DNA from: Alkalicoccus sp.
Lineage (GTDB): Bacteria; Bacillota; Bacilli; Bacillales; Salisediminibacteriaceae
Assembly (NCBI GenBank): GCA_007692495.1
Contig: REBZ01000106.1
Span: 62,001 to 126,000 of the forward strand
DNA length: 64,000 bases
Direction: 5' to 3'
In this document: positions 23,008 through 23,232 of the stretch, one piece after another
How positions within the stretch are numbered: the first letter of the stretch is position 1
How the letters are laid out: each line of letters opens with the position of its first letter
Notes under the pieces: generated by a model
Seen by the model: only the letters and a program-made list of their open reading frames with translations
What the model was told of the DNA's origin: nothing
The model's database searches: none
Translations under genes and position numbers: made by a program

Positions 23008-23232
23008 ATGAAAATAACCATTGAATTCTGCATGCAGTGAAATTACGCTCCAAAAGCTGCGAGTTTCGCAGAAGAAATATTCAGTGAGATGCGCCGTGAA
23101 ATTACTTGTTTTGAACTCATCCCCTCTTCAGGAGGAGCTTTCGAGGTTTATAAAGAAGGAGAATTAATATACTCGAAATTAAGCACTGGGTCTTTTCCGG
23201 AAACAGAAAGCATTATTAAACAATTAAAGTAA
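23008..23232 (+). CDS. SelW/Rdx-family selenoprotein (CxxU), missed in ORF track
   Basis: MKITIEFCMQUNYAPKAASFAEEIFSEMRREITCFELIPSSGGAFEVYKEGELIYSKLSTGSFPETESIIKQLK*; TGA at 23038-23040; SD GGAAGGGGAG. Confidence 0.93.
23057..23071 (+). promoter_or_regulatory. bSECIS stem-loop of selW-like gene
   Basis: CTGCGA-GTT-TCGCAG perfect 6 bp stem, loop starts 22 nt after UGA with G first. Confidence 0.75.

What the first reader, a model, noticed from the sequence alone, without database searches (positions are those of the whole stretch)
23008..23232. Unannotated SelW/Rdx-like selenoprotein with CxxU motif
ATG 23008 with a good SD opens a 74-codon frame interrupted only by TGA at codon 11. The product MKITIEFCMQUNYAPKAASFAEEIF...FELIPSSGGAFEVYKEGELIYSKLSTGSFPETESIIKQLK has the Rdx/SelW fold signature (C-x-x-U near the N-terminus, SGGAFEV, GSFPE). 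CTGCGA-GTT-TCGCAG lies 16 nt after the UGA. The gene lies between divergent selD and downstream selA. It is absent from the ORF track because of the UGA and its small size.
Basis: partly seen in the sequence, partly recalled or inferred. Interest (0 to 1): 0.8.

Follow-up and report, generated by a model that had tools for sequence, protein, structure and literature searches.

The report
Bacterial selenoprotein W gene, mis-annotated
A 74-residue gene that ordinary gene finders cut short really encodes a small selenium-containing redox protein (selenoprotein W type); the same gene, always with the selenium codon, sits beside the selenium-insertion genes in many related Bacillus-like bacteria.

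Summary
ATG 23008 opens a 74-codon frame whose only interruption is UGA at codon 11. The product matches Pfam Rdx at 78.9 bits (cut-off 22.6) and NCBIfam TIGR02174 (SelW/T/H), and its predicted fold superposes on solved SelW-like proteins. The window is an Alkalicoccus-like draft genome whose sel locus holds tRNA-Sec, selB, a Sec-type selD, selW and selA. All 43 Rdx matches in 60 relatives plus this genome, and all 80 named loci examined, carry UGA at this place. In 401 Bacilli genomes all 52 with UGA-Rdx have SelB; the one SelB-less genome with Rdx has no UGA. The hairpin 16 nt after the UGA shows compensatory changes and is a bSECIS. selA lies next door in nearly all loci. This is a genuine selenoprotein W, a known kind of bacterial selenoprotein; the nearest relative is annotated only as a truncated 47-aa 'hypothetical protein'. 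Hence a new member of a known kind; its strict linkage to the sel locus is the informative part. A scan of the same genome found two apparent selenoproteins, CueP and a GAF-STAS protein, absent from the 2022 and 2026 catalogues and more novel than the assigned finding.

The parts
23008..23232 (+). selW: Rdx/SelW-family selenoprotein, 74 aa, CxxU (C8-M-Q-U11)
23038..23040 (+). UGA codon read as selenocysteine (U11)
   Evidence: one in-frame UGA in 43/43 relatives, at this position in 80/80 named loci; UGA-Rdx only in SelB genomes
23057..23071 (+). bSECIS hairpin CUGCGA-GUU-UCGCAG, 6 bp, G first in the loop, 16 nt after UGA
   Evidence: compensatory changes; 557/558 pair cells standard in 93 distinct sequences
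22993..23000 (+). ribosome-binding site AAGGGGAG, 7 nt before the ATG
   Evidence: sequence
22946..22974 (+). promoter-like site TTGACC-17-TAGAAT for selW
   Evidence: consensus match 10/12; not proof of function
23240..23268 (+). intrinsic-terminator-like hairpin after selW
21829..22905 (-). selD, selenophosphate synthetase, itself with in-frame UGA (codon 21, 22843-22845)
23351..23455 (+). 34-aa ORF with one hydrophobic stretch, overlapping the selA start by 4 nt
   Evidence: conserved within the genus; no family match
23452..24870 (+). selA, L-seryl-tRNA(Sec) selenium transferase
19794..21665 (+). selB, Sec-specific elongation factor
19601..19697 (-). selC, tRNA-Sec, anticodon TCA

Best explanation
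It is selW, a gene for a genuine small selenoprotein of the prokaryotic SelW-like (Rdx) family in an Alkalicoccus-like bacterium. Shown by sequence comparison: the reading frame, the UGA in the active-site position, a covarying stem-loop just downstream, a complete Sec machinery at the same locus, strict co-occurrence of UGA-Rdx with SelB, and purifying selection after the UGA. Inferred from established knowledge of the bacterial Sec system: SelB.GTP.Sec-tRNA(Sec) binds the stem-loop and inserts selenocysteine at codon 11; without selenium, translation stops after 10 residues. Inferred for function: a thioredoxin-fold oxidoreductase in which the selenolate of U11 attacks an oxidised substrate and C8 resolves it to an internal Se-S bond, which thioredoxin or a low-molecular-weight thiol then reduces. 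The physiological substrate is unknown.
For: Rdx 78.9 bits, E 3.3e-22; TIGR02174 63.0 bits against cut-off 34.2. Model with mean pLDDT 93 superposes on solved SelW-related proteins, TM 0.92, rmsd 1.0. UGA in 43/43 Rdx matches in relatives, 55/58 in the class sample, 80/80 named loci. UGA-Rdx occurs only with SelB: 52/52 genomes that have it, against 0 of 318 genomes without SelB. Stem: 557/558 cells paired in 93 distinct sequences, 0 of 2000 synonymous-codon shuffles reach this; 3 pairs with double changes, slid controls 21-66% paired. selA downstream in nearly all of 80 loci, selD divergent in most. tRNA-Sec, selB, selD, selA all in the window. UGA readthrough of a SelW of the same family was seen by Ribo-seq and mass spectrometry in Campylobacter jejuni (PMC11955535).
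Against: No direct evidence of selenium incorporation in this organism. The hairpin is not in the minimum-energy fold of its 60-nt context, which is only mildly more stable than shuffles, z -1.5. Core energy is -6.5 kcal/mol, or -7.8 with flanks, at the edge of the published -7.5 limit. 30 of 83 SelB genomes in the class sample have no Rdx, so SelW is dispensable for Sec users. The redox mechanism is inferred from fold and motif.
Confidence: 0.93

Rival explanations
1. The UGA is a true stop; the gene is decayed or makes a 10-residue peptide, and an internal start at Met28 gives a 47-aa protein, as one public annotation has it.
For: The nearest relative, A. saliphilus, is annotated exactly so (P0028, 47 aa, 'hypothetical protein').
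Against: The residues before and around the UGA (EFCMQUNYAPKAASFAE) are among the most conserved of the protein; UGA is kept in 80/80 loci of many genera; dN/dS after the UGA is low; the 47-aa form would lack the first strand, the first helix and the active site.
Confidence: 0.02
2. The UGA is read as tryptophan or another standard residue by suppression, without selenium; several metagenome gene sets give W at this place.
For: Database proteins with CMQWNYAPK.
Against: Those look like output of gene callers set to a UGA=Trp code. UGA-Rdx occurs only in SelB genomes, the alternative residue in the family is Cys, and a covarying bSECIS follows.
Confidence: 0.02
3. The protein is a genuine selenoprotein but its main job is selenium handling for the Sec pathway (for example carrying or reducing selenium for SelD) rather than general thiol-disulfide exchange.
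For: Among the relatives every Rdx genome has SelB, and 43 of 45 SelB genomes have Rdx; selW lies between selD and selA in most loci.
Against: 30 of 83 SelB genomes in the class lack Rdx; Rdx proteins are common in other bacteria, e.g. on rhizobial plasmids and those of PDB 2fa8, 3dex and 2obk; linkage may only reflect co-inheritance.
Confidence: 0.12

Closest known systems
Prokaryotic selenoprotein W (SELENOW)-like protein, Pfam PF10262, CxxU (PMC1088965, PMC1794560, PMC2398784; listed as 'predicted with high confidence' in PMC13188914)
   Same: Profile match, CxxU motif, size, fold, UGA plus bSECIS; predominance of Sec over Cys forms was already noted in marine samples (427 against 56) and in genomes
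   Different: Found here across Bacillaceae/Bacillales genera, with selW next to selA and mostly opposite selD; none of the papers read describes this
Campylobacter jejuni SelW (CJnc60), NCBIfam NF041051
   Same: Small unannotated selenoprotein W; full-length translation through UGA shown by Ribo-seq and mass spectrometry (PMC11955535)
   Different: Scores 76.1 against the NF041051 cut-off of 88, so not that equivalog
Mouse SelW (PDB 2npb) and MIEN1/C17orf37 (2ljk)
   Same: Related sequence and fold
   Different: More distant (TM 0.66 and 0.64, 25-28% identity); eukaryotic partners such as 14-3-3 are not implied

Membership tests
Rdx / SelW-like selenoprotein (PF10262, TIGR02174) | Profile score above curated cut-off | tested here: met
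   78.9 against 22.6 bits; 63.0 against 34.2
Rdx / SelW-like selenoprotein (PF10262, TIGR02174) | CxxU (or CxxC) between first strand and first helix | tested here: met
   C8-M-Q-U11 between strand 2-8 and helix 14-27
Rdx / SelW-like selenoprotein (PF10262, TIGR02174) | Thioredoxin-like fold of the SelW type | tested here: met
   TM 0.92 to 2fa8 and 2obk, on a predicted model
Rdx / SelW-like selenoprotein (PF10262, TIGR02174) | Selenocysteine actually incorporated | not testable with these tools
   comparative evidence only
Rdx / SelW-like selenoprotein (PF10262, TIGR02174) | Redox activity | not testable with these tools
   needs bench work
NF041051 SelTWH_Campy equivalog | Score above curated cut-off | tested here: not met
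   76.1 against 88 bits
bSECIS consensus (constraints as given in PMC13188914) | 4-16 bp stem, 3-9 nt apical loop | tested here: met
   6 bp, 3 nt
bSECIS consensus (constraints as given in PMC13188914) | G in first two loop positions | tested here: met
   G first in the loop in all 93 distinct sequences
bSECIS consensus (constraints as given in PMC13188914) | 16-37 nt between UGA and apical loop | tested here: met
   22 nt
bSECIS consensus (constraints as given in PMC13188914) | Free energy at or below -7.5 kcal/mol | tested here: inconclusive
   -6.5 core, -7.8 with flanks
Sec-decoding trait | selA, selB, selC (tRNA-Sec), selD present | tested here: met

The most novel reading that the evidence does not exclude
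SelW of this group is a dedicated part of the selenium pathway, for example a selenium carrier or reductase that serves SelD/SelA, which would explain why it is nearly always Sec-type, confined to SelB genomes, and placed between selD and selA.
Probability: 0.12. Interest if true: 0.7.

Novelty: new member of a known kind. Interest (0 to 1): 0.4.

Why it matters
A widespread gene of Bacillaceae/Bacillales is missed or truncated because gene finders stop at UGA. Its tight tie to the Sec machinery makes these Gram-positive bacteria good places to learn what bacterial SelW does. The same genome scan shows a sizeable thiol-type selenoproteome without a Sec-type formate dehydrogenase, including two families not in current catalogues.

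Tried and rejected
(1) I suspected SelW was the only selenoprotein besides SelD in this genus, since the formate dehydrogenases there lack UGA. A scan of the draft genome for in-frame UGA rejected this: seven further candidates. (2) True stop or pseudogene: rejected by conservation and dN/dS. (3) UGA read as Trp: rejected, tracks SelB. (4) Membership in NF041051: score below cut-off. (5) Single-sequence folding did not favour the hairpin; the comparative test decided. (6) Searches for papers on SelW in Bacillaceae/Bacillales found none in the open library; subscription journals are not covered, so absence is not proof. (7) The gap between selW and selA in Neobacillus and B. methanolicus holds an Hsp20-like gene on the other strand (judged from the translation, not searched).

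Full report
Observation. The frame at 23008-23232 is as described: 74 codons, one UGA at codon 11, stop TAA, ribosome-binding site AAGGGGAG 7 nt before the ATG. The stem-loop CTGCGA-GTT-TCGCAG begins 16 nt after the UGA. The frame is not in the mechanical ORF list.

Family. With U read as C the product matches Pfam Rdx (78.9 bits, cut-off 22.6) and NCBIfam TIGR02174 (63.0, cut-off 34.2); it falls short of the Campylobacter SelW equivalog NF041051 (76.1, cut-off 88). By sequence it is related to solved SelW-like proteins (2fa8 E 3e-10). A predicted model (mean pLDDT 93) superposes on them with TM about 0.9 and rmsd about 1 A. The motif C8-x-x-U11 sits between the first strand and first helix, the active-site place of thioredoxin-like folds.

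Locus. tRNA-Sec, selB, selD (itself with UGA at codon 21) and selA are all within 5.3 kb. A promoter-like site precedes selW and a terminator-like hairpin follows it, so here it may be its own transcription unit (inference).

Relatives. The genome is a draft (2.74 Mb, 220 contigs, 81% complete); its closest named relative is Alkalicoccus saliphilus (SelW 96% identical, same gene order). Of 61 related genomes, 43 have Rdx and all 43 matches carry one in-frame UGA (one of them, in G030, is a partial match in which the UGA position was not checked); 45 have true SelB. Rdx occurs in no genome without SelB; the two SelB genomes without Rdx are an 80%-complete draft (G007) and G043. In 401 genomes of the class, 54 have Rdx (58 matches, 55 with UGA) and 83 have SelB. 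All 52 UGA-Rdx genomes have SelB, none of 318 genomes without SelB has UGA-Rdx; the one Rdx genome without SelB has no UGA. The Fisher p-values ignore shared descent. In a scan of genome contigs, 219 stretches encode a relative; the best 80 were kept and all 80 have UGA at this place. One search pattern was written with Cys, which if anything favours Cys forms; but only the nearest 80 were read. Cys forms exist: three matches without UGA in the class sample, and a Cytobacillus eiseniae record shows C.

Stem-loop. In 93 distinct sequences 557 of 558 pair cells are standard pairs, with exchanges U-A/C-G, G-C/A-U and C-G/U-A; the first loop base is always G; none of 2000 shuffles of synonymous codons reaches this pairing. 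A separate count on 28 sequences gives 99.4% paired, 3 pairs with changes on both sides and far lower values when slid. The hairpin meets the published bSECIS constraints except that energy is borderline (-6.5 core, -7.8 with flanks), and single-sequence folding prefers another structure.

Selection and annotation. dN/dS after the UGA is 0.07 against A. saliphilus and 0.10 against G003. In A. saliphilus the public record is a 47-aa 'hypothetical protein' starting after the UGA; metagenome sets show W at the UGA.

Gene order. Of 80 named loci, nearly all have selA directly downstream (an Hsp20-like gene on the other strand lies between in some) and most have selD divergent upstream; selB is within the fetched flank in about a third. 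SelD is Sec-type in all 69 loci where its motif was read.

Mechanism. SelB-dependent Sec insertion is inferred from the machinery and the bSECIS; readthrough of a SelW UGA is shown in C. jejuni (PMC11955535). The redox role is inferred from fold and motif.

Known or new. SelW-like CxxU selenoproteins have been predicted since 2005-2006 and were among the most widespread and the most numerous family in the marine GOS survey (PMC1088965, PMC1794560, PMC2398784); the 2026 catalogue lists the family. What I did not find in the open literature is its distribution and gene order in Bacillaceae/Bacillales.

Beyond the finding. A scan of the draft genome for in-frame UGA between coding-like stretches, with Pfam confirmation, gave HesB-like, AhpC/TSA-like (UxxC), OsmC, MsrA and DsbA-like candidates, all known selenoprotein kinds, plus CueP and a GAF-STAS protein, which are not in the 2022 or 2026 catalogues. 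CueP carries one UGA in over 20 relatives, at a Cys position in those read; in the class sample the full-length UGA forms occur only in SelB genomes, while an incomplete draft without detected SelB (G035) is an exception among relatives. The GAF-STAS protein has UGA in about 12 relatives and a stem-loop with exchanges in both arms.

Noticed in passing
L111 (own genome C168, UGA at 4443, - strand); L112-L120: CueP, periplasmic copper-binding protein, with in-frame UGA at a Cys position (ETHP[U]SIHNLTGC) followed by stem-loop CCTGACA-GGT-TGTCAGG; over 20 relatives have a UGA, and it is absent from the 2022 and 2026 selenoprotein catalogues. Candidate new selenoprotein family.
   Followed up: partly
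L121 (own genome C68, UGA at 14118, - strand); L124-L130: GAF-STAS protein (RsbR-like architecture) with in-frame UGA (SY[U]QxI) and stem-loop AAACGGC-CGTGA-GCCGTTT whose arms co-vary; not in the catalogues. Candidate selenocysteine-containing sensor. Longer GAF proteins in G037, G038 and G040 also hold one UGA.
   Followed up: partly
own genome C78:9595(-), C6:8197(+), C81:3791(-), C60:10501(+), C160:27494(-): HesB-like, AhpC/TSA-like lipoprotein (UxxC), OsmC-like, MsrA and DsbA-like genes with in-frame UGA and a downstream stem-loop: a thiol-type selenoproteome while formate dehydrogenases of the genus lack UGA.
   Followed up: partly
23351-23455 (+): 34-aa ORF with one hydrophobic stretch, overlapping the selA start by 4 nt; conserved in Alkalicoccus, with similar small peptides between selW and selA in Evansella tamaricis (L042) and Litchfieldia alkalitelluris (L089).
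   Followed up: partly
L046:6312-6731 and L058:6393-6782 (-): Hsp20-like gene on the opposite strand between selW and selA in Neobacillus drentensis and Bacillus methanolicus.
   Followed up: no
G226:C12:8288-8503 and G205:C30:823-1038 (class sample): Rdx matches with two in-frame UGA codons, in genomes that also have a one-UGA copy.
   Followed up: no
G061:C1 (class sample): Genome with both a UGA and a UGA-less Rdx gene; useful for comparing the two forms.
   Followed up: no
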